From Actinomycetospora sp. NBRC 106378 (GTDB lineage Bacteria > Actinomycetota > Actinomycetes > Mycobacteriales > Pseudonocardiaceae), in NCBI RefSeq assembly GCF_030269685.1, contig NZ_BSTT01000003.1:1-64000 (forward strand): DNA of 64,000 nucleotides, written 5' to 3'. This document shows, piece after piece, positions 25,709 through 34,293 of the stretch. Within the stretch, counting starts at the first letter, position 1, and each line of letters opens with the position of its first letter. The translations under genes were made by a program, and so were the position numbers. The notes below the pieces were generated by a model that had not been told where the DNA came from, did no database searches, and worked only from the letters and a program-made list of their open reading frames with translations.

Positions 25709-26424
25709 GCCTGCTCGAGCTCGCGGGAGTCAACGTCGCCTACGGGCGCATCCAGGCGCTGCGCGGCATCTCGCTGACCGTGCAGGAGGGACAGATCGTC
25801 TCGTTGATCGGCGCGAACGGCGCCGGCAAGACGACGACGATGAAGACGATCTCCGGACTGCTGGGCCTGCAGTCGGGGTCGATGACCTTCGACGGCGAGG
25901 ACCTGACGAAGGTCCGCGCGGACCTGCGCGTGCGCAAGGGGATCTGCCAGGTGCCCGAGGGTCGCGGAATCTTCCCCGGCATGACGGTGCTGGAGAACCT
26001 GGACATGGGTGGGTTCGTCCGGTCCGACCGGCGCTCGAAGGAGTTCACCGAGGACCAGGAGCGGGCGTTCACGTACTTCCCGCGTCTGGCCGAGCGACGC
26101 AACCAGGTCGGCGGCACGCTCTCCGGCGGCGAGCAGCAGATGCTCGCCATCGGGCGCGCGCTGATGGCCCGACCGCGGCTCCTGCTGCTCGACGAGCCCT
26201 CGATGGGGCTCGCCCCGCAGTTCATCCAGCAGATCTTCCGGGTGATCGAGGACATCAACCGGGAGGGCGTCACGGTCCTGCTGGTCGAGCAGAACGCCAC
26301 GCAGGCGCTCGGGCTCGCCCACCAGGCGTACGTGCTGGAGACCGGGGAGGTGACCCGCTCCGGCCCCGGCTCCGAGCTGCTCGCCGACCCGACGATCCAG
26401 GACGCGTACCTGGGCGTGTCGTAG
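25705..26424 (+). CDS. livF: LivF-type ABC transporter ATP-binding protein
   Basis: A 239-residue ATPase with Walker A GANGAGKTT, Q-loop QVPEGRGIFPGMT (the LivF mark), signature LSGGEQQMLAIGRAL, Walker B LLLLDEPSMGLAP and H-loop VEQN, as is normal for LivF. GTG 25705 overlaps the livG stop. It is the last gene of the importer operon; a long hairpin starts nine bases after its stop. Confidence 0.94.
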   Translation: MSLLELAGVNVAYGRIQALRGISLTVQEGQIVSLIGANGAGKTTTMKTISGLLGLQSGSMTFDGEDLTKVRADLRVRKGICQVPEGRGIFPGMTVLENLDMGGFVRSDRRSKEFTEDQERAFTYFPRLAERRNQVGGTLSGGEQQMLAIGRALMARPRLLLLDEPSMGLAPQFIQQIFRVIEDINREGVTVLLVEQNATQALGLAHQAYVLETGEVTRSGPGSELLADPTIQDAYLGVS

Positions 26425-26432
26425 GGCCACCA

Positions 26433-26497
26433 CGGAACGGCACGAACGGGCCGTCCGTCACGATGCACCGTGACGGACGGCCCGTTCGTGCGTTCCG
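26433..26497. terminator. Long hairpin, probable bidirectional terminator
   Basis: Two arms of about 30 bases (26433-26462 and 26469-26497) pair with one single-base bulge around a 6-base loop. No U-run follows, as is usual in high-GC actinomycetes. The hairpin lies between livF and the convergent acyltransferase gene and includes the last codons and stop of the latter, so it can serve both operons. Confidence 0.8.
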
Positions 26498-27711
26498 GGC
26501 CGGGCCACCGCCCGGGCCGCCCGCCGGCTCAGGGCGGTCACGGCGGCCTCGAGGGGGCCACGGCCCGCGGTCGCGCGCCAGCCCCAGCCGAGCAGGAGCA
26601 CGGCGACGACCTGGATGAGGTAGCCCGTCGTCGGGCCGTAGACGTCGAAGTCGGAGTTGATGAACAGGACGTGCAGGACGTAGAAGGTCAGCGTCATCCC
26701 GCCGGCTGCGGTGAGCGGGGCACGGACCACGTCGAGCGCGGCCCGCGGCCGCGGGCGCCGGACGTGGTCGGCGAGCAGCGCGACCCCGAGCACCGCGAGC
26801 GCGACCCCGATCGTGAGGGCGAGGTCGAGTGGCGTGGAGGAGTGCGGGGTGTCGACGGCGAGCCACCACCAGGTCGTCGTCGGCGTCACCCCGTCCGGGC
26901 CGACGGTCAGGGCCTCGTGGACCGTCTCCGGGTCCGCGCCCGCCGAGGCCGCCAGGATGCTCGGCAGAGCCCGCTCCGTCAGCCGGTCCGAGACCAGGGC
27001 CGCCGTGACCGCGAGCGCGGTACCCACCCCCGCCAGCGCGGCGGCCGTCCGTGCCGACGACAGGCGCATCCGGCCGACGGCCAGCCCGACGCACAGGTAG
27101 GGCAGCCAGGACAGCACGGGGTAGTAGCCCGTGACCGCGATCTCGGTGAGCATCCCGGCCGGGTCGTCCACGAGCCACGTGAACGACGGATTCATCCCCG
27201 TGGCGACCGGGAGGTGGGCCCGGAGCGCCTGGCTCGCGAACGGGACCCCGACCGTCAGGACCGCGCCCAGCGCGAGGAGGGTGCGCCGCCCGAGGAACAC
27301 CAGCGGCACCGCGGCCACGAACAGCAGCGCGTAGTAGGCGAGGATCACCGCCGCGATCTCCGGGTCGTTGCCTCCGAGGGCGAGCCCGACCAGCCCGACG
27401 GCGAGGCCGCGCACCACGAGTGCCACCGCCGTGGGGAGCGCGCGATCGCTCCGCAGCGGGACGCGGCGGCGGCCGGTGGTGAAAGCGATGCCGACCCCCG
27501 CGAGCAGCGCGAACAGCGCCGCGGACTTCCCGCCGGCGAGCACCGAGGTCCACGTCGCGTTCCCGGCGGCGTCGGTCTCGTACAGCGCGTGCACGGCCAT
27601 CATCCCGAGCAGGGCGAGGCCACGGGCGGCGTCGACCCCGAGGATGCGCTCCCGCGGGGGTGCGGGGTCCTCGGTGACCGGTGGGGCCGGCAGCGTGCGG
27701 GCATGCGTCAT
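26458..27711 (-). CDS. Multi-pass membrane acyltransferase-like protein (HGSNAT/DUF1624 type)
   Basis: This 417-residue membrane protein has about ten hydrophobic segments. The opening RILGVDAARGLALLGMMAVHAL is the DUF1624/HGSNAT-type start (R-x-x-x-D-x-x-R-G, His on the first helix), and LTFYVLHVLFI near the end is a typical conserved late helix. Relatives move acetyl or other acyl groups across membranes. ATG 27711 has GAGGAGG upstream. It lies 31 bases after the M1 peptidase gene on the same strand, so it is probably the fourth gene of the Pls operon and might modify the polymer or the envelope. This role is inference. Confidence 0.75.
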   Translation of the reverse strand: MTHARTLPAPPVTEDPAPPRERILGVDAARGLALLGMMAVHALYETDAAGNATWTSVLAGGKSAALFALLAGVGIAFTTGRRRVPLRSDRALPTAVALVVRGLAVGLVGLALGGNDPEIAAVILAYYALLFVAAVPLVFLGRRTLLALGAVLTVGVPFASQALRAHLPVATGMNPSFTWLVDDPAGMLTEIAVTGYYPVLSWLPYLCVGLAVGRMRLSSARTAAALAGVGTALAVTAALVSDRLTERALPSILAASAGADPETVHEALTVGPDGVTPTTTWWWLAVDTPHSSTPLDLALTIGVALAVLGVALLADHVRRPRPRAALDVVRAPLTAAGGMTLTFYVLHVLFINSDFDVYGPTTGYLIQVVAVLLLGWGWRATAGRGPLEAAVTALSRRAARAVARPGTHERAVRHGAS

Positions 27712-27742
27712 CGCGGGTCCTCCTCGGGAGGGGCAGCAGGGT

Positions 27743-29116
27743 TCAGGGGTGCGGCAGGGCGCCGCGGGAGGTGAGCAGGTCGGTCACGGCGGGGAGGTCG
27801 CGGAAGGCCGCGGCCACGTCCGCGGGGGTCGCCACGCGGTGGGCGTTCACCGCGAGGTAGCGGCGCACCGCGTCGTCGAAGGCGGGCGCGCCGACCCGTC
27901 GTCGGGCCTCGAGCAGGGTGGCGGCGCCCTGGACGTAGACGCCGGTCTCGTAGCGGTCGAAGCTCCCGTCCCACGCCGACAGGGGGTCGCCGAGGCGGCC
28001 GTCGAGGCGGCGGGGCACGTCGTCGAGGGAGTACTCGTCGGGTCGGCCGGTGGCGACCGCCTCGGCCCAGGTGGCGAAGGCCTCGTCCATCCACGGGTGC
28101 AGGCCCTGGTCGTTGCCGACCAGGGAGTAGAACCACTGGTGGGCGAGCTCGTGGGTGGCGAGGCTCGGGAGGTCGCCGGGTCGGGTGTCGCCGAACTGCA
28201 GCGCGCCCGGGTACTCGATGCCCGACGACTGGCCGGGTGCGAGCGCGACCCAGAGGTCGGGGTACGGGAACGGGCCGAGCAACGGCTGGAGCCGGCCGAT
28301 CGCGGTGTCGATCTCCGTGACCCAGCGGTCGGGGTCGGTGCGGGTCCCCGGGAGCAGGAACAGGTGCAGGCGGGTGCCGGCGACGTCCCGCTCGACGACC
28401 TCGTACGGGCCCACGGCCACCGCGACGTCGCGGACGGCGTCGGCGGTGAAGCGATGGGTGGTGCGTCCGGCGGCGTCGGTCGTGCCCACCGCGCGGCCCA
28501 CCCCGGACACCGCGAGGCCGCTCGGCGCGGTCACCTCCAGCGAGCGCAGCGTGAACTCCTCCGAGACCGCGTTCTCCCCGGGCGCGGTCGCGGCCGGGGT
28601 CCGGACCCAGCCCTGGCCCCGGACCCACGCGAGCAGCGGGAAGGCCGAGCCGAACCAGGCGACGCCGCGCGAGGTGCCGAGCCGGTCGTCGGCGTCGGGC
28701 CCCAGCGCGAGCGTGAAGCCGAGGTCGACCGTCACCGTGCGACCGGCGGGCACGCAGGACGGCAGGGGCAGCGTCACGAGCGTGCCCGGCGCCCCGGCCG
28801 GGGCACCGGCCGCCTCGACGCGGGGCGCGACCGGGGTGCCGTCGACGGCCGAGGTGTCGACGCGCAGCGAGCTGCCCGCCGCGGCCGACACCGGCGCGTT
28901 CGGCCACGCCCGGAACACCAGCTCGCAGACCGGGGCGTCGGGGGTGAACGCGACCTGCTCGCGGCCGGTCGCACCGCGCAGGTCGTCGGCGACGTCGAAC
29001 GCGAGGGACACCACGGGCCGGGCCGGGTCCGGGGCGGCCCGCGGAGGAGTGGTCGGACCCGGTGAGCACGCGACGAGCAGCGTGGCCAGGAGGGCGACGA
29101 GGGTCGTGCGGATCAC
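27743..29116 (-). CDS. M1-family zinc metallopeptidase lipoprotein
   Basis: A 457-residue exported lipoprotein (lipobox LVAC, Cys17). The mature part has an N-terminal beta domain, the substrate-loop GIEYPG (299-304) and the zinc site HELAH (322-326) followed 18 residues later by Glu345 in DEAFATW, the exact M1 spacing. It lacks the long C-terminal helical domain of full aminopeptidase N. GTG 29116 overlaps the preceding gene (GTGA). In poly-lysine producers a zinc aminopeptidase degrades the polymer, so this gene is a good candidate for polymer trimming or self-protection. That is inference from context. Confidence 0.88.
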   Translation of the reverse strand: MIRTTLVALLATLLVACSPGPTTPPRAAPDPARPVVSLAFDVADDLRGATGREQVAFTPDAPVCELVFRAWPNAPVSAAAGSSLRVDTSAVDGTPVAPRVEAAGAPAGAPGTLVTLPLPSCVPAGRTVTVDLGFTLALGPDADDRLGTSRGVAWFGSAFPLLAWVRGQGWVRTPAATAPGENAVSEEFTLRSLEVTAPSGLAVSGVGRAVGTTDAAGRTTHRFTADAVRDVAVAVGPYEVVERDVAGTRLHLFLLPGTRTDPDRWVTEIDTAIGRLQPLLGPFPYPDLWVALAPGQSSGIEYPGALQFGDTRPGDLPSLATHELAHQWFYSLVGNDQGLHPWMDEAFATWAEAVATGRPDEYSLDDVPRRLDGRLGDPLSAWDGSFDRYETGVYVQGAATLLEARRRVGAPAFDDAVRRYLAVNAHRVATPADVAAAFRDLPAVTDLLTSRGALPHP

Positions 29117-29754
29117 GTCGTCGCCGCCGTGACGAGGTCGTCCGCGAGGTCCCGGGCGTCGTGGACGGGCAGCCCGACGTCGGTGAACCAGTCGGCGGTC
29201 GCCTCGGGGTGCGGCCCGACGACCCCCACCCGGCCGCGCCCGTACGCGGCGACGAGGGCAGCGACCTCGCCGCCGGGGTACCGGGCGAGGACGTCGGTCC
29301 CGTCGGTGCGGGTGAACCGGGCGCCGTCCTGGAAGAACAGCGTCCGGCGACGTCCCCGCCAGTCGACCTCGACGAGGGCATCGGCGTCGGGGTCGTCGAC
29401 GGTCGCGTGCGGCGACGTGACGTACTGGTCGGTGTCGCCGGGCAGCAGGCCCAGCCCCGGTCCCCGCCCGGCGAGGTACGCGCCGAGACAGAAGCCGACG
29501 TAGGACCCGCCGTCCGCCACCCAGCTGCGCAGCACGCGCCGGTGCCGGCGCAGGTGCCGCCAGGCGTGCCGCAGGCTCCCGCCGCCGGGCTGGGCGTACA
29601 GCGCGGCCCCCGCGAGGACCTCCGCCTCCAGCGGACGGTCGCCGTCGGGGCCGACGGTGGCGACGTCGAACCCGTGCGCGGTGAGCAGCGCCGCCACCGC
29701 CTCGGGGCAACCCGGCAGGGTGGCGGGGCCGTCGTAGACGAGCGCGAGACTCAC
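29113..29754 (-). CDS. BPL_N-domain (class I amidotransferase-like) protein
   Basis: A 213-residue protein with the fold of the biotin-protein-ligase N-terminal domain, related to glutamine amidotransferases. YAQPGGGSLRHAWRHL is near residue 53, the nucleophile-type Cys lies in GGSYVGFCLGAYLAG near residue 92, and a late His occurs in GVVGPHPEATADWF. No ammonia-using partner domain is present. GTG 29754 overlaps the pls-like stop, and its own stop overlaps the peptidase start (GTGA both times), so the three are translated together. A role in processing or releasing the polymer is possible; none is shown. Confidence 0.78.
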   Translation of the reverse strand: MSLALVYDGPATLPGCPEAVAALLTAHGFDVATVGPDGDRPLEAEVLAGAALYAQPGGGSLRHAWRHLRRHRRVLRSWVADGGSYVGFCLGAYLAGRGPGLGLLPGDTDQYVTSPHATVDDPDADALVEVDWRGRRRTLFFQDGARFTRTDGTDVLARYPGGEVAALVAAYGRGRVGVVGPHPEATADWFTDVGLPVHDARDLADDLVTAATT

Positions 29755-32700
29755 GCCGCCACCGCCTCGGCGGGGATCCCGCCCGACCGGCTCCGGGCCG
29801 CCAGCTGCTCGCCCTTCATGACGAGGCTGAGCGGGCCGAGCTCCGCGCCCGCCCCCACCTCGCCGTCGTAGAGCACGATCGAGCGGTCGCCGACCGTCGC
29901 GCCCGCCTCGACGCGCACCGTCGACAGCTTCATGACGCGGTCCTCGAACAGGTGGGTCTGCAACGAGACCTCGCGGCCGACCGCGGCGTCGTCGCCGACC
30001 TCCACGAGGTCGAACTCGGTGAGGTAGGTCGTCGCCAGCCACACCCGGCTTCCGATCCGCGCACCGAGGAGCCGCAGCGCCCAGGGCAGGAACGGGGTGC
30101 CGGTGAGCAGATCCAGCCCGGCGGGGACCGCGGCCGCCTCGTAGAGCCCCGTCACGAACTCCGAGCGGCGCACGAACTCGTCCCACAGGGGAGCGGTGCG
30201 CGGGCGGTAGGTCCCCACGACGTGGTGCTTCACCGCCGCGACGTAGGCGATCACCAACGCCGACGCCGCTGCGGCGAGGAACGGGGCCACGAACGCCGGG
30301 ACCCAGAGCGGTCGTCCGTCGGCGACGGTGGAGAGCGCCGTGAGGTGCAGGTAGACGGCCAGCCCGAGCAGCGACGCGGGCAGCGAGGCGCGGACGAACT
30401 CCAGCGCGAGACGCCGCCGGACCCGGCGTCGGGACGGGCGGAAGGTCTCCGAGTCGGGGTGCGACCCGGAGTCCTCGCGCCGCGGCAGGTGGATGGCGGG
30501 GGAGCCGAGCCACGACGAGTCGCGGCCCACCACCGCCGGCGGGGCCGTCGCCACCCCGACCAGCGACCCGCTCCCCGCCCGGGTGCCGCCGGGCAGGAGG
30601 GCGGCGTTCCCGACGAAGGCCCGTTCCCCGACCACCGTCGGACGCAGCAGCATCCGCCCGCGGGCGAACACGGCGCTCCCGACCCCCGCCATGTCGGCGA
30701 CGAAGCTGCCGGCGCCGAGGTCGAGCAGGTCCGGGTCGACGTGGGCGACCGTGGAGATCTCCGCGCCGGGGCCGATGCGCGCGCCGAGCAGCCGCATCCA
30801 CCCCGGCGTGTAGAGCGTCGCGTAGAGCGAGTTGGTGAAGGTCAGCGAGTCGACCAGCAGGGCGTCGGCGAGCCACTTGCGCAGGCCGAGCCCGGACCGG
30901 ACGGGGTGCACGCCCACCGGGGTGCGGGGGAGGAGCAGCCGGCGGCCGCCCGCCACGATCGCGCAGACGGTGAGGACGAACAACGGGCCGGAGAGCAGCG
31001 TGGCGACGAGCCCGGCGAGCACGCCCCAGGCCAGGAGCGCGGCCCAGACCGCGACGACGGTCGGGACGACCATGAGCACCGCCGCGGCCTCCAGCCCGAC
31101 GACGCCCACGATCGCCGGGACGAGGTGGTACCAGCGCCAGCCGCGGGCCGGTCGGGCCCGACCCATCGCGCCGAGCATCGGGTCGGCGACGTCGACGGGG
31201 ACCGGCGGGGAGCCCGCCACCGTGGCGCCCGCGGGTACGTGCCCGTCCCGGGACAGGACGGACTGCTCGCCGATCGCCGCGTCGACCCCGACCCGGGAGC
31301 CCGGCGCGAGGACGGTGCCCGTCCCGACGACGGCCCGCGCGCCGACCGTGATCACCCCCACCTCGACCCGTCCGCCGCGCACCTGCCACGGGCGCAGCGA
31401 GACGCCGTAGCCGAGGGAGGCGTCGTCGCCGAGTCGCAGCAGGCAGGGGGCGCTGACGGCGGAGGCAGCGAGGTGGACCCGTCGTCCGACCCGGGCGCCG
31501 AGGAGGCGCAGGTAGGGCGACGCGAAGGGGCCGCCGGCGAGCACGGGCAGCGGCGAGAGCCGCAGCAGCAGGTCGACCGCCCACAGCCGGAGGTACACGG
31601 TGCCCCAGAGCCGGTAGGTGCCCGGGCGGAGCGCCAGCGTGAGCGGCCGCACGAGCAGCACCGGCAGCAGCCAGCGGACGCCGAGATAGGTCGCGGTCCC
31701 GGCCGCGAGGATCTCGAGCAGGACCGCCGGGGAGACCACGCCGTCGTTCCACCAGTAGACGACGGACGCGGGCAGCGTCAGGGCGAGCAGCACCAGGTAG
31801 AGGGCGACCGCCTGCGCCCCACCCGCCACGGCCACGCGCCGGGCGGAGTGGCACAGCGGTGGTTCCGCCGGGGCGGCCGCCGGGGGCCGGTCGCGCAGGA
31901 CCGCCGCGAGCCCCCGCACGTGCGGGTGGGCGTAGAGGTCCCGGACGGCGACCCCGAAGCCGGCCTCGCGCAGGGCCGTCACCACCCGGGCGGCGAGCAG
32001 CGAGTGGCCCCCGAGGTCGTCGAAGAAGTCCGCCGTCGCGGGGACCGCCTCGAGGCCGAGCACGGAGGCCATGACGCCGGCGATCCGGGACTCCGGGCCC
32101 GGAGCGGGCGTGTCGCCGGCGGCCGCCGACCCCACGAACCGCGACCCCGTCGGTGGAGGCAGCGCGGACCGGTCGACCTTGCCGCTGGCCTGGGTCGGGA
32201 GGGCGGCGAGGACGTCGAGGGTGGCCGGGACCATGTAGGGCGGCAGGCGCTCGGCGGCCACGGCGTGCAGGCGGTGCCGTCGGGTGTCCGCGTCCGCGAC
32301 GCCCACGGCGGGGTCCACCACGTACGCAGCGAGTTCTCCGGAGGCCGGGTCGAGGGCCACGACGGCCGCGGCCACCTCGTGGTCGGCGAGCAGCACGCTC
32401 TCGATCTCGCCCAGGTCGACCCGGCGGCCCCGGACCTTCACCTCGGCGTCGGCCCGTCCGAGGTAGACGATCTCGCCGTGCTCGTCGAGCCGCCCGAGGT
32501 CGCCGGTGCGGTACACGCGCTCGCCCGTCCCCGGGTGCACGACGAACTTCTCGGCCGTGAGCTCGGGGCGGCCCAGGTAGCCCAGCGCCACGCCGGGTCC
32601 CCCGAGCGTGATCTCCCCGACCTCGCCGTCGGCGACCGGCGGGTGGTCGGGGTCGTCGGGGTCGGTGAGCTCGGCGGTGTAGGTCGGGAGGGGCCGGCCG

Positions 32701-33665
32701 ATCGTCACGGGGCGCCCGGGGTGCAGCTCGCACCAGGTGGCCGTGACGGTGGCCTCGGTGGGCCCGTAGGTGTTGAGCAGGCGGCGCCCGGGGCGAGCCC
32801 AGCGCTCCACGATCTCGCCGGGGCAGGCCTCCCCGCCCACCAGCACGGTGCGCAGGTCCGGCAGCTCGGTCGGCACCGTGGCGAGCAGGGTCGGCACCGC
32901 GCACAGCACGGTGATCCGCCGCGTGGCGAGGTGCTCGCCCAGGTCGGCGCCGAAGGCGCGCTCGTCGTCGGGACCCGCGACCACGGTCGCGCCGACCGCC
33001 CAGGCGGACCAGATCTCCTCGATCGAGAAGTCGAACGAGATCGTCATGCCCTGGTGCACGCGGTCGTCGGGCCGGACGTCGTAGATCCCCGGGATCACCG
33101 TCAGGAAGTTGGCGATGCTCGCGTGGGAGACGGCGACGCCCTTGGGTCGTCCGCTGGAGCCGGAGGTGAAGATGACGTACGCGGTCCCGACGGCGGGGCG
33201 CGCGGCCGGGCGGGTGGGGCGTGCGGCGGCGAGCTCGTCGCCGGCCTCGTCGAGGACGAGCACGGCGGTGCCCGTGACCCGGTCCGCCAGCGCGCGGACG
33301 GTGAGCACGACGGCGACCTCGGCGTCGTCGACCACGTGGGCCACGCGGTCCGCCGGTGACCCGGGATCGAGGGGCACCAGGGTGGCCCCGGCCTTGAGCA
33401 CGCCGAGGATCGCGACGTAGGTCCGCCCGGAGCGCGGCAGGAGCACCGCCACGCGGTCGCCGGGGCCGACGTCGCGCGCGGCCAGCAGGTACGCGAGCCG
33501 GTTGGCCCGCGCCTCCAGCTCGCGGTAGCGGACGGCCTCGCCGTCGGCCTCGACCGCGACGCGATCGGGCCACCGGTCCGCGATCGCCTCGAAGAAGCCC
33601 TCCATACGGACGGGGCCGGGGGCCGGCTCGGACGTGGGCGGGCAGGGGGATACGTGCGTGGTCAC
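29751..33665 (-). CDS. Pls/PosA-type membrane NRPS (isopeptide homopolymer synthetase)
   Basis: This 1304-residue synthetase has an adenylation domain at about 22-505: TSGSSGRPKG 168-177, FDFSIEEIW 211-219, YGPTEAT 300-306, YRTGDLGR 385-392. The carrier domain at 525-595 has Ser555 in GGHSLL. Three membrane blocks alternate with left-handed-beta-helix modules, each marked by LLGAR(I/V)G at about 721, 959 and 1199. There is no condensation or thioesterase domain. This is the layout of epsilon-poly-lysine synthetase Pls and relatives, which polymerise one amino acid by isopeptide bonds at the membrane. GTG 33665 follows GGAGG at a 7-base spacing. It leads a four-gene operon. The basic-amino-acid substrate is inferred. 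Confidence 0.87.
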   Translation of the reverse strand: MTTHVSPCPPTSEPAPGPVRMEGFFEAIADRWPDRVAVEADGEAVRYRELEARANRLAYLLAARDVGPGDRVAVLLPRSGRTYVAILGVLKAGATLVPLDPGSPADRVAHVVDDAEVAVVLTVRALADRVTGTAVLVLDEAGDELAAARPTRPAARPAVGTAYVIFTSGSSGRPKGVAVSHASIANFLTVIPGIYDVRPDDRVHQGMTISFDFSIEEIWSAWAVGATVVAGPDDERAFGADLGEHLATRRITVLCAVPTLLATVPTELPDLRTVLVGGEACPGEIVERWARPGRRLLNTYGPTEATVTATWCELHPGRPVTIGRPLPTYTAELTDPDDPDHPPVADGEVGEITLGGPGVALGYLGRPELTAEKFVVHPGTGERVYRTGDLGRLDEHGEIVYLGRADAEVKVRGRRVDLGEIESVLLADHEVAAAVVALDPASGELAAYVVDPAVGVADADTRRHRLHAVAAERLPPYMVPATLDVLAALPTQASGKVDRSALPPPTGSRFVGSAAAGDTPAPGPESRIAGVMASVLGLEAVPATADFFDDLGGHSLLAARVVTALREAGFGVAVRDLYAHPHVRGLAAVLRDRPPAAAPAEPPLCHSARRVAVAGGAQAVALYLVLLALTLPASVVYWWNDGVVSPAVLLEILAAGTATYLGVRWLLPVLLVRPLTLALRPGTYRLWGTVYLRLWAVDLLLRLSPLPVLAGGPFASPYLRLLGARVGRRVHLAASAVSAPCLLRLGDDASLGYGVSLRPWQVRGGRVEVGVITVGARAVVGTGTVLAPGSRVGVDAAIGEQSVLSRDGHVPAGATVAGSPPVPVDVADPMLGAMGRARPARGWRWYHLVPAIVGVVGLEAAAVLMVVPTVVAVWAALLAWGVLAGLVATLLSGPLFVLTVCAIVAGGRRLLLPRTPVGVHPVRSGLGLRKWLADALLVDSLTFTNSLYATLYTPGWMRLLGARIGPGAEISTVAHVDPDLLDLGAGSFVADMAGVGSAVFARGRMLLRPTVVGERAFVGNAALLPGGTRAGSGSLVGVATAPPAVVGRDSSWLGSPAIHLPRREDSGSHPDSETFRPSRRRVRRRLALEFVRASLPASLLGLAVYLHLTALSTVADGRPLWVPAFVAPFLAAAASALVIAYVAAVKHHVVGTYRPRTAPLWDEFVRRSEFVTGLYEAAAVPAGLDLLTGTPFLPWALRLLGARIGSRVWLATTYLTEFDLVEVGDDAAVGREVSLQTHLFEDRVMKLSTVRVEAGATVGDRSIVLYDGEVGAGAELGPLSLVMKGEQLAARSRSGGIPAEAVAA

Positions 33666-33861: not shown

Positions 33862-34293
33862 TCAGGCCTGCGGGGTCGCGTCGCGGTAGATGCAGGTCAG
33901 CTTGGCGGTACAGACGCGACGGCCCTCGTCGTCGGAGATGACGATCTCGAACGTGCCGACCGTCCTCCCGACCGACGCGGGCGTGCAGACCGCGGTGACG
34001 TGGCCGGAGAGGGCCGAGCGGTGGTGGGTGCACGCGAGCTCGAGGCCGACCGGGCGGCGGTCACCGATCCGGTTGAGGTAGGCCGCCGTCGAACCGACCG
34101 TCTCGGCGAGCACGGCGCTCGCGCCGCCGTGCAGCAGGCCGAAGGGCTGGCGGTTCCCGGCCACCGGCATGGTGGCGACGGTCCGCGCCGGATCCCACTC
34201 GGTGATCTCGATGCCCATCTTCGTCCCGAGCTGCTCGTCGGGGTAGGCGACCTCGAGCTCGGGGACGGCCTGCTGTTCGGGGGACTGTGCCAC
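33862..34293 (-). CDS. PaaI-type hotdog thioesterase
   Basis: A 143-residue single hotdog-domain protein with the family loop FGLLHGGASAVLAETVGS (catalytic-type His-Gly-Gly and Glu). The C-terminal strand set ELACTHHRSAL and GRTVGTFEIVISDDEGRRV (cited in part) completes the fold. Such proteins hydrolyse aryl- or acyl-CoA thioesters. It is divergent from polA with a 58-base gap and has its own terminator hairpin downstream, so it is a single-gene unit. No CoA pathway gene is adjacent, and the substrate is unknown. Confidence 0.88.
   Translation of the reverse strand: MAQSPEQQAVPELEVAYPDEQLGTKMGIEITEWDPARTVATMPVAGNRQPFGLLHGGASAVLAETVGSTAAYLNRIGDRRPVGLELACTHHRSALSGHVTAVCTPASVGRTVGTFEIVISDDEGRRVCTAKLTCIYRDATPQA

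What the first reader, a model, noticed from the sequence alone, without database searches (positions are those of the whole stretch)
26458..33665. Pls/PosA-type polymer operon: synthetase, amidotransferase-like, M1 peptidase, acyltransferase
The first three genes overlap by GTGA, and the fourth follows after 31 bases. The synthetase has the poly-lysine-synthetase layout, and the peptidase recalls the zinc enzymes that degrade epsilon-poly-lysine. A BPL_N protein and a membrane acyltransferase add undescribed steps. This may be a self-contained system for a cationic isopeptide polymer.
Basis: partly seen in the sequence, partly recalled or inferred. Interest (0 to 1): 0.78.

Follow-up and report, generated by a model that had tools for sequence, protein, structure and literature searches.

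The report
Cationic polymer operon with exported trimmer
Four neighbouring bacterial genes look like a small factory that makes a positively charged amino-acid polymer and then modifies and trims it; the factory type is known, but this set of helper genes seems to be a conserved, undescribed variant.

Summary
In detail: four minus-strand genes (26458-33665) encode a TIGR02353 (Pls/PosA) synthetase S, a BPL_N protein B, an M1 metallopeptidase M and a membrane acyltransferase A. S/B and B/M overlap by GTGA; M and A are 31 bases apart. The nearest relative found is Actinomycetospora soli.

The interpretation needs changes. S is not a lysine enzyme: code DFECLGTVTK, against DAESIGTVVK in 25 of 26 other Pls-type rows, and a separate clade that includes two poly-L-Dab-type loci. 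M is 20-24% identical to the M1 neighbours of Pls. B has a class I glutamine-amidotransferase fold and an invariant Cys-His-Glu triad (80 of 80). A has the fold of HGSNAT, a transmembrane amine acetyltransferase.

The gene set recurs: of 70 untruncated rows B is in 57, A in 46, M in 28, in changed orders. Of 44 rows with B and A, 23 carry M, 17 a Tat-type exported second B, none both, 4 neither.

Best reading: a diamino-acid isopeptide polymer is made, N-acetylated by A, and trimmed by B inside and by M or B2 outside. The monomer is undecided. pls-pldII pairs are known; my searches listed no paper on this module. New variant of a known kind.

The parts
29751..33665 (-). S: Pls/PosA-type synthetase, A domain + PCP + membrane terminal domain; 1304 aa from GTG 33665 or 1284 aa from ATG 33605
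   Evidence: TIGR02353 528.5 bits over cut-off 423.1; Pfam AMP-binding, PP-binding; code DFECLGTVTK at residues 212, 213, 216, 255, 275, 277, 299, 307, 308, 496; six hydrophobic segments in the C-terminal part
32001..32003 (-). PCP serine S555 (GGHSLLA), expected phosphopantetheine site
   Evidence: motif found; PP-binding residues 527-589
29113..29754 (-). B: BPL_N protein, class I glutamine-amidotransferase fold, no hydrophobic N-terminal segment
29751..29754 (-). GTGA overlap of S and B
   Evidence: 19 of 37 adjacent S-B pairs have a 4-base overlap
29113..29116 (-). GTGA overlap of B and M
27743..29116 (-). M: M1-family zinc metallopeptidase, probable lipoprotein (LVAC lipobox, Cys17), window-type branch
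   Evidence: PF01433 41.1 bits; H322, E323, H326, E345 in 33 of 33; tree; nearest solved sequence: 6a8z zinc metalloprotease, E 1.4e-8
26458..27711 (-). A: HGSNAT-like membrane acyltransferase
27712..27742 (-). 31-base gap between M and A

Best explanation
The operon makes, modifies and trims a cationic isopeptide homopolymer. Steps: (1) S charges a diamino acid, probably with a short side chain, on its PCP and polymerises it at the membrane [family shown by sequence; activity inferred from Pls and PosA]. (2) B is a cytosolic Cys-His-Glu hydrolase of glutamine-amidotransferase fold that cuts amide or thioester bonds of chains inside the cell, so releasing or clearing them [fold and triad shown by model and conservation; reaction inferred]. 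(3) A carries an acetyl group from cytosolic acetyl-CoA across the membrane to amines of the exported chain, lowering its charge or capping its end [fold shown; substrate inferred]. (4) M, a surface lipoprotein, trims the exported polymer and protects the producer; in other lineages a PldII-type M1 enzyme or a Tat-exported second B stands in the same operon [replacement shown; function inferred]. The monomer is probably 2,4-diaminobutyrate, ornithine or 2,3-diaminopropionate; not decided.
For: Family. Cationic pocket: D-F-E at positions 1-3 in 82 of 82 clade rows; PosA binds the two amines by the same D and E, and Phe at position 2 is reported for poly-Dap/poly-Dab synthetases (PMC10522769 passages). 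Two poly-L-Dab-type loci (S-dat-ask; L036, L154) fall in the same clade on the tree. Association: of 394 class genomes 11 hold this BPL_N subfamily, 7 of the 11 next to a clade synthetase (six candidates scored per genome). Of 70 untruncated rows B 57, A 46, M 28, exported B2 18; of 44 with B and A: 23 M only, 17 exported B2 only, 0 both, 4 none. Orders change: SBMA, SBAM, SAB.M, SDBAB, SBAB, SBM. B2 has Tat-like RRRFL-type signals. Folds. PldII is translationally coupled to pls, lies outside the membrane, and its repression harms the producer (PMC9223678 passages).
Against: Other Pls/PosA enzymes polymerise without B or A (C. variabile pls alone in S. coelicolor, PMC8117764; PosA in vitro, PMC10522769). 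10 of 70 rows have S alone and 7 of those 10 genomes have no B match; no Streptomyces row has A. B also occurs away from S: 4 of 11 class genomes and two S-alone genomes (L178, L179). The M/B2 exclusion rests on 6 independent tree pairs, M differing in at most 3 of them, and on 3 pairs within B+A+ rows: too few for a test. Window-type M also occurs in genomes with no TIGR02353 match over cut-off (G010, G034, G052, G370). Neither dat nor SbnB is over cut-off in 17 of 50 genomes, A. soli included, which speaks against Dab or Dap as the only monomer. No product of this clade is known to me.
Confidence: 0.5

Rival explanations
1. B is a true glutaminase: it frees ammonia from glutamine and serves S or another enzyme, for example to amidate the chain end or the monomer.
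For: The fold matches Pdx2 and HisH glutaminases best; profile hits in the PDB, though weak (E 0.029 and 0.11), are led by HisH and a glutamine amidotransferase; B stands beside S, often with a 4-base overlap.
Against: 18 of 70 rows carry an exported B paralogue, where an ammonia channel to a cytosolic partner is hard to see; no amidotransferase synthase domain was recognised in the operon.
Confidence: 0.22
2. The product is not a secreted antibiotic-like polymer but a short, acylated, envelope-bound oligopeptide; A anchors or masks it, and M or B2 matures it at the surface.
Against: The products described for this synthetase family in the passages read are polymers, not envelope-bound oligopeptides.
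Confidence: 0.2
3. One reading: a poly-lysine-like system with a PldII-type degrading enzyme.
For: Same synthetase family and an M1 gene in the operon; 23 of 26 Pls-type loci examined have an M1-like gene right after Pls.
Against: Lysine code not met, separate clade, M in another branch.
Confidence: 0.05
4. B, M and A are chance or regional neighbours with no part in the product.
For: 10 of 70 rows have S alone; window-type M is not confined to this operon; B occurs away from S in some genomes.
Against: Same set in many genera with changed orders and 4-base overlaps; BPL_N subfamily rare (11 of 394) and in 7 of 11 next to S.
Confidence: 0.03

Closest known systems
epsilon-poly-L-lysine operon pls-pldII (Streptomyces albulus, Corynebacterium variabile)
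   Same: Pls/PosA-family synthetase followed by a peptidase outside the membrane (PMC9223678 passages, PMC8117764 section 5); M1-like gene after Pls in 23 of 26 Pls-type loci here
   Different: Different clade and A-domain code; M from a deeply separate M1 branch; no match to the window's B in the Pls-type loci examined
gamma-poly-L-diaminobutyrate cluster (synthetase, dat, ask; PMC8117764 legend)
   Same: Phe at code position 2; two loci of this layout (L036, L154) fall at the base of the clade
   Different: Window S has no dat or ask beside it; positions 6-7 are GT rather than SA
delta-poly-L-ornithine synthetase PosA (Acinetobacter baumannii)
   Same: D1, E3, G6, T7, V8, K10 of the code DMEHNGTVSK (PMC10522769)
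   Different: Met at position 2 instead of Phe; PosA is a single-gene operon
Class I glutamine amidotransferases Pdx2/YaaE and HisH
   Different: 18-20% identity; no synthase partner recognised; some paralogues are exported
HGSNAT, heparan-alpha-glucosaminide N-acetyltransferase
   Same: Pfam PF07786 over cut-off and fold of A
   Different: 12-14% identity; bacterial, in an operon with a polymer synthetase; the acceptor is unknown
Zinc metalloprotease 6a8z (M1 family)
   Same: Best PDB sequence match of M
   Different: Function of M untested; M is a probable lipoprotein

Membership tests
Pls/PosA family synthetase (TIGR02353) | Terminal-domain score over the curated cut-off | tested here: met
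   528.5 bits, cut-off 423.1
Pls/PosA family synthetase (TIGR02353) | A domain and PCP, no condensation or thioesterase domain | tested here: met
   Pfam: AMP-binding, AMP-binding_C, PP-binding, Hexapep below cut-off; no other family at E 0.01
Pls/PosA family synthetase (TIGR02353) | Six transmembrane helices in three pairs around three tandem soluble domains | tested here: inconclusive
   Six hydrophobic segments by a simple hydropathy scan, one of them 64 residues long
epsilon-poly-lysine synthetase (Pls proper) | Lysine code D-A-E-S-I-G-T-V-V-K | tested here: not met
   Window DFECLGTVTK; 25 of 26 other Pls-type rows have DAESIGTVVK; S. albulus Pls 7wew shows the same residues in the alignment (read by eye)
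epsilon-poly-lysine synthetase (Pls proper) | Groups with Pls on a synthetase tree | tested here: not met
   82 clade rows and 18 Pls rows separated, support 100*, fasttree with a long-branch warning
poly-L-Dab cluster | Synthetase next to dat and ask | tested here: not met
   Neighbours of S are B and a 143-aa gene; no dat over cut-off in the genome
PldII-type epsilon-PL-degrading enzyme | M1 zinc motif HExxH...E | tested here: met
   H322, E323, H326, E345 in 33 of 33
PldII-type epsilon-PL-degrading enzyme | Groups with the M1 genes next to Pls | tested here: not met
   25-row branch against 29-row branch, support 100*, lengths 2.67 and 2.27
PldII-type epsilon-PL-degrading enzyme | Hydrolysis of the operon's polymer | not testable with these tools
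   needs enzyme and polymer
Class I glutamine amidotransferase fold | Fold and Cys-His-Glu triad | tested here: met
Class I glutamine amidotransferase (function) | Glutaminase activity with a synthase partner | not testable with these tools
   no assay; no partner domain recognised
HGSNAT family | PF07786 over cut-off | tested here: met
   42.4 bits, cut-off 22
HGSNAT family | Membrane acetyltransferase fold | tested here: met
HGSNAT family | Catalytic residues and acetyl transfer to an amine | not tested
   conserved H41, H290 seen, but not matched to HGSNAT's catalytic residues

The most novel reading that the evidence does not exclude
A clade-wide system whose product is an N-acetylated or end-capped isopeptide polymer of a short diamino acid, with an operon slot for one exported depolymerase that is filled by three unrelated or deeply separate enzymes (lipoprotein M1, PldII-type M1, Tat-exported glutamine-amidotransferase-fold hydrolase). 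The last would be a new extracellular depolymerase type, and its cytosolic paralogue B the missing chain-release or editing enzyme of this synthetase kind.
Probability: 0.33. Interest if true: 0.75.

Novelty: new variant of a known kind. Interest (0 to 1): 0.55.

Why it matters
How chains leave these thioesterase-less synthetases and what sets their length was called unsolved in the poly-Dap paper (PMC4668381, section 5). A conserved hydrolase-like gene overlapping the synthetase gene makes that question directly testable. A transmembrane amine acetyltransferase beside it would also predict acetylated polymers, which assays for cationic broth products could miss.

Tried and rejected
Lysine polymer: rejected by code and tree. 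Orthology of M with the Pls-neighbour peptidases: rejected. Monomer from neighbouring genes: no dat- or Sbn-like cluster among the gene clusters shared by 4 or more of the 84 loci (clusters judged by the start of one member each); dat over cut-off in 29 of 50 genomes and SbnB in 18 of 50, both in 14, neither in 17 (recount 112). The window's genome has SbnA and SbnB over cut-off in another locus, but A. soli has no SbnB match, so Dap is not settled. The DDAH/arginine-dihydrolase-like gene D (15 of 84 loci) might supply ornithine, but loci with and without it share the same code, and all its NCBIfam scores are below cut-off.

M1/B2 exclusion: Fisher p 6e-7 on 56 B-positive rows (0 both, 17, 27, 12), before correcting L096 (second B found to be exported) and L108 (its M follows a second, Pls-type synthetase). 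Tree-independent pairs were too few. An earlier count from called genes gave 0, 14, 30, 14 and was replaced. Rows dropped: 11 of 80 loci with under 4.5 kb after S; L037 and L038, from the same contigs as L116 and L124; L152 had no synthetase call. In L139 B and A lie on the other side of S in opposite orientation and were not counted. The regex codes had gaps and were replaced by alignment-based codes. The synthetase tree is a fasttree; long branches meet at its root. Tat signals were judged by motif and hydropathy only.

Literature: searches listed no paper that I could recognise as describing the B-A-M set beside a Pls-type synthetase, and 110 found none; I judged by titles, abstract starts and term counts of capped listings (for example 20 of 57, 12 of 2,354). 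The library lacks most subscription papers (Yamanaka 2010 not held; Yamanaka 2020 not seen). Papers seen: PMC10522769 passages and section 11; PMC8117764 passages and section 5; PMC4668381 passages and section 5; PMC8225329, PMC9606270 and PMC9223678 passages; all others listing only.
Full report
WHAT IS THERE. Four minus-strand genes between 26458 and 33665 form one unit: S (29751-33665), B (29113-29754), M (27743-29116), A (26458-27711). S/B and B/M overlap by GTGA, and 31 bases separate M from A. Codon scoring picks these frames among many overlapping ORFs.

SYNTHETASE. S carries an A domain, a PCP and the TIGR02353 terminal domain at 528.5 bits. In 394 genomes of the class, 105 have TIGR02353 over its cut-off. 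Of 26 Pls-type loci examined, 23 have an M1-like gene right after Pls; none of the Pls-type loci matched the window's B. S sits in another clade: 82 clade rows and 18 Pls rows split with full support on a fasttree, with the tool's warning that long branches meet there. The alignment-based code is DFECLGTVTK; D-F-E opens the code in 82 of 82 clade rows, whereas 25 of 26 other rows read DAESIGTVVK. PosA uses the matching Asp and Glu to bind the two amines, and Phe at position 2 is reported for poly-Dap/poly-Dab synthetases (PMC10522769, passages and section 11). Two rows, L036 and L154, have a diaminobutyrate-transaminase-like gene and an aspartate-kinase-like gene next to S (in L036 both score below most NCBIfam cut-offs, the L154 genes were read by eye), the layout named for the gamma-poly-L-Dab cluster in PMC8117764 (section 5). 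They branch near the base of the clade.

MONOMER. No recognised supply gene is in the operon. In the window's genome, SbnA (366.5 bits) and SbnB (403.3 bits) are over cut-off at C3:579-581 kb, in a second TIGR02353 locus, while the best dat match is 194.4 bits, below 401.6. Of 50 genomes with clade synthetases (50 of the 80 named loci), 29 have dat and 18 SbnB over cut-off; 17, A. soli among them, have neither. Positions 6 and 7 (G, T) agree with PosA and Pls, not with the two Dab-type rows (S, A). So ornithine remains possible beside Dab and Dap.

M. M1 motif invariant in 33 of 33. On a tree of 54 M1 proteins, 25 window-type rows stand apart from 29 others, which are 23 Pls neighbours plus six M rows of Microbispora and Streptomyces; the branches are 2.67 and 2.27 changes per site. 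Window M is 20-24% identical to the Pls neighbours. A lipobox was seen in 24 of 25 window-type rows, in 0 of the six PldII-type M rows and in 0 of 23 Pls neighbours. Relatives of window-type M also occur in genomes with no TIGR02353 match over cut-off (G010, G034, G052, G370).

THE MODULE. Orders differ by lineage: SBMA Actinomycetospora, SBAM Pseudonocardia, SAB.M Geodermatophilus and kin, SDBAB Micromonospora and Dactylosporangium, SBAB Amycolatopsis, Rhodococcus and others, SBM Microbispora, SB Streptomyces. S-B pairs overlap by 4 bases in 19 of 37 adjacent cases, B-A pairs in 18 of 24. After profile-based recounting, 70 untruncated rows have B 57, A 46, M 28 and an exported second B 18 (L096 corrected, L108 M set aside). 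The second B carries a Tat-like signal such as RRRFLIG. Of 44 rows with both B and A, 23 have M only, 17 exported B only, none both, and four neither (L085, L115, L116, L141). The tree offers 6 independent pairs over all rows and 3 within the 44, too few for a test; the exclusion is a pattern, not a proven law. Ten of 70 rows have S with none of the partners: seven of these genomes have no B match, two have a B away from S (L178, L179), and one, Nocardia L120, also has a full SBAB operon (L177). The genomes of L134 and L135, rows with A but no B, hold S-A-B-M copies too.

READING. PldII is reported to be coupled to pls, to sit outside the membrane and to protect the producer (PMC9223678, passages). 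In this clade the same place in the operon is held by a different M1 lipoprotein, by a PldII-type M1 or by an exported B. That interchange is the main reason to read B and B2 as hydrolases of the product rather than glutaminases. The cytosolic B may release or clear chains; synthetases of this kind have no thioesterase domain, and the poly-Dap paper leaves release open (PMC4668381, section 5). A would acetylate the exported chain. Shown here: gene set, folds, conservation, replacement pattern. Inferred: all reactions, monomer, and the product itself.

NOVELTY. The synthetase family and the synthetase-M1 pair are known. Searches listed no paper that I could recognise as treating the B-A-M set; listings were capped and the library is open-access only. 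I call it a new variant of a known kind.

Noticed in passing
L041 (window genome C3:575500-594500, outside the window): Second TIGR02353 locus of the host: a synthetase whose A domain scores below the NCBIfam cut-off, a second NRPS-type protein, SbnA and SbnB; by eye also a TauD-like and a Ser/Thr-kinase-like gene. Probably a Dap-based product.
   Followed up: partly
L076:12020-12853, L082:12022-12828, L115:12673-13458 and others: A DDAH/arginine-dihydrolase-like gene D joins the operon in 15 of 84 loci, mostly directly after S; Pfam DDAH over cut-off in the two scanned, NCBIfam scores below cut-off.
   Followed up: partly
L108:7956-18537: Streptomyces pinistramenti: clade synthetase + B followed by a Pls-type synthetase + PldII-type M1, the two kinds side by side.
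   Followed up: partly
L166:7969-8745: A Streptomyces genome carries a lipoprotein-like exported B with no synthetase called nearby; it could be a resistance or scavenging enzyme.
   Followed up: no
L178:6656-7321 and L179:7097-7810: In two genomes whose clade synthetase stands alone, a B gene lies elsewhere without S, A or M called around it.
   Followed up: no
L106, L112, L114 upstream of S: Rhodococcus loci have one or two further B genes upstream, some with hydrophobic N-termini.
   Followed up: no
L068, L070: Streptomyces loci with a TIGR02353 gene of about 860 aa that seems to lack an A domain, next to another NRPS-like gene; in L068 beside SbnA (over cut-off) and, by eye, an SbnB-like gene.
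   Followed up: no
window 33865-34293 (-): A 143-aa gene upstream of S on the same strand, also in A. soli; it looks like a PaaI-type thioesterase (recalled, not scanned) and is not among the clusters shared by 4 or more loci.
   Followed up: no
window 26425-26457: The operon converges with the + strand gene ending at 26424; 33 bases lie between the two stop codons.
   Followed up: no
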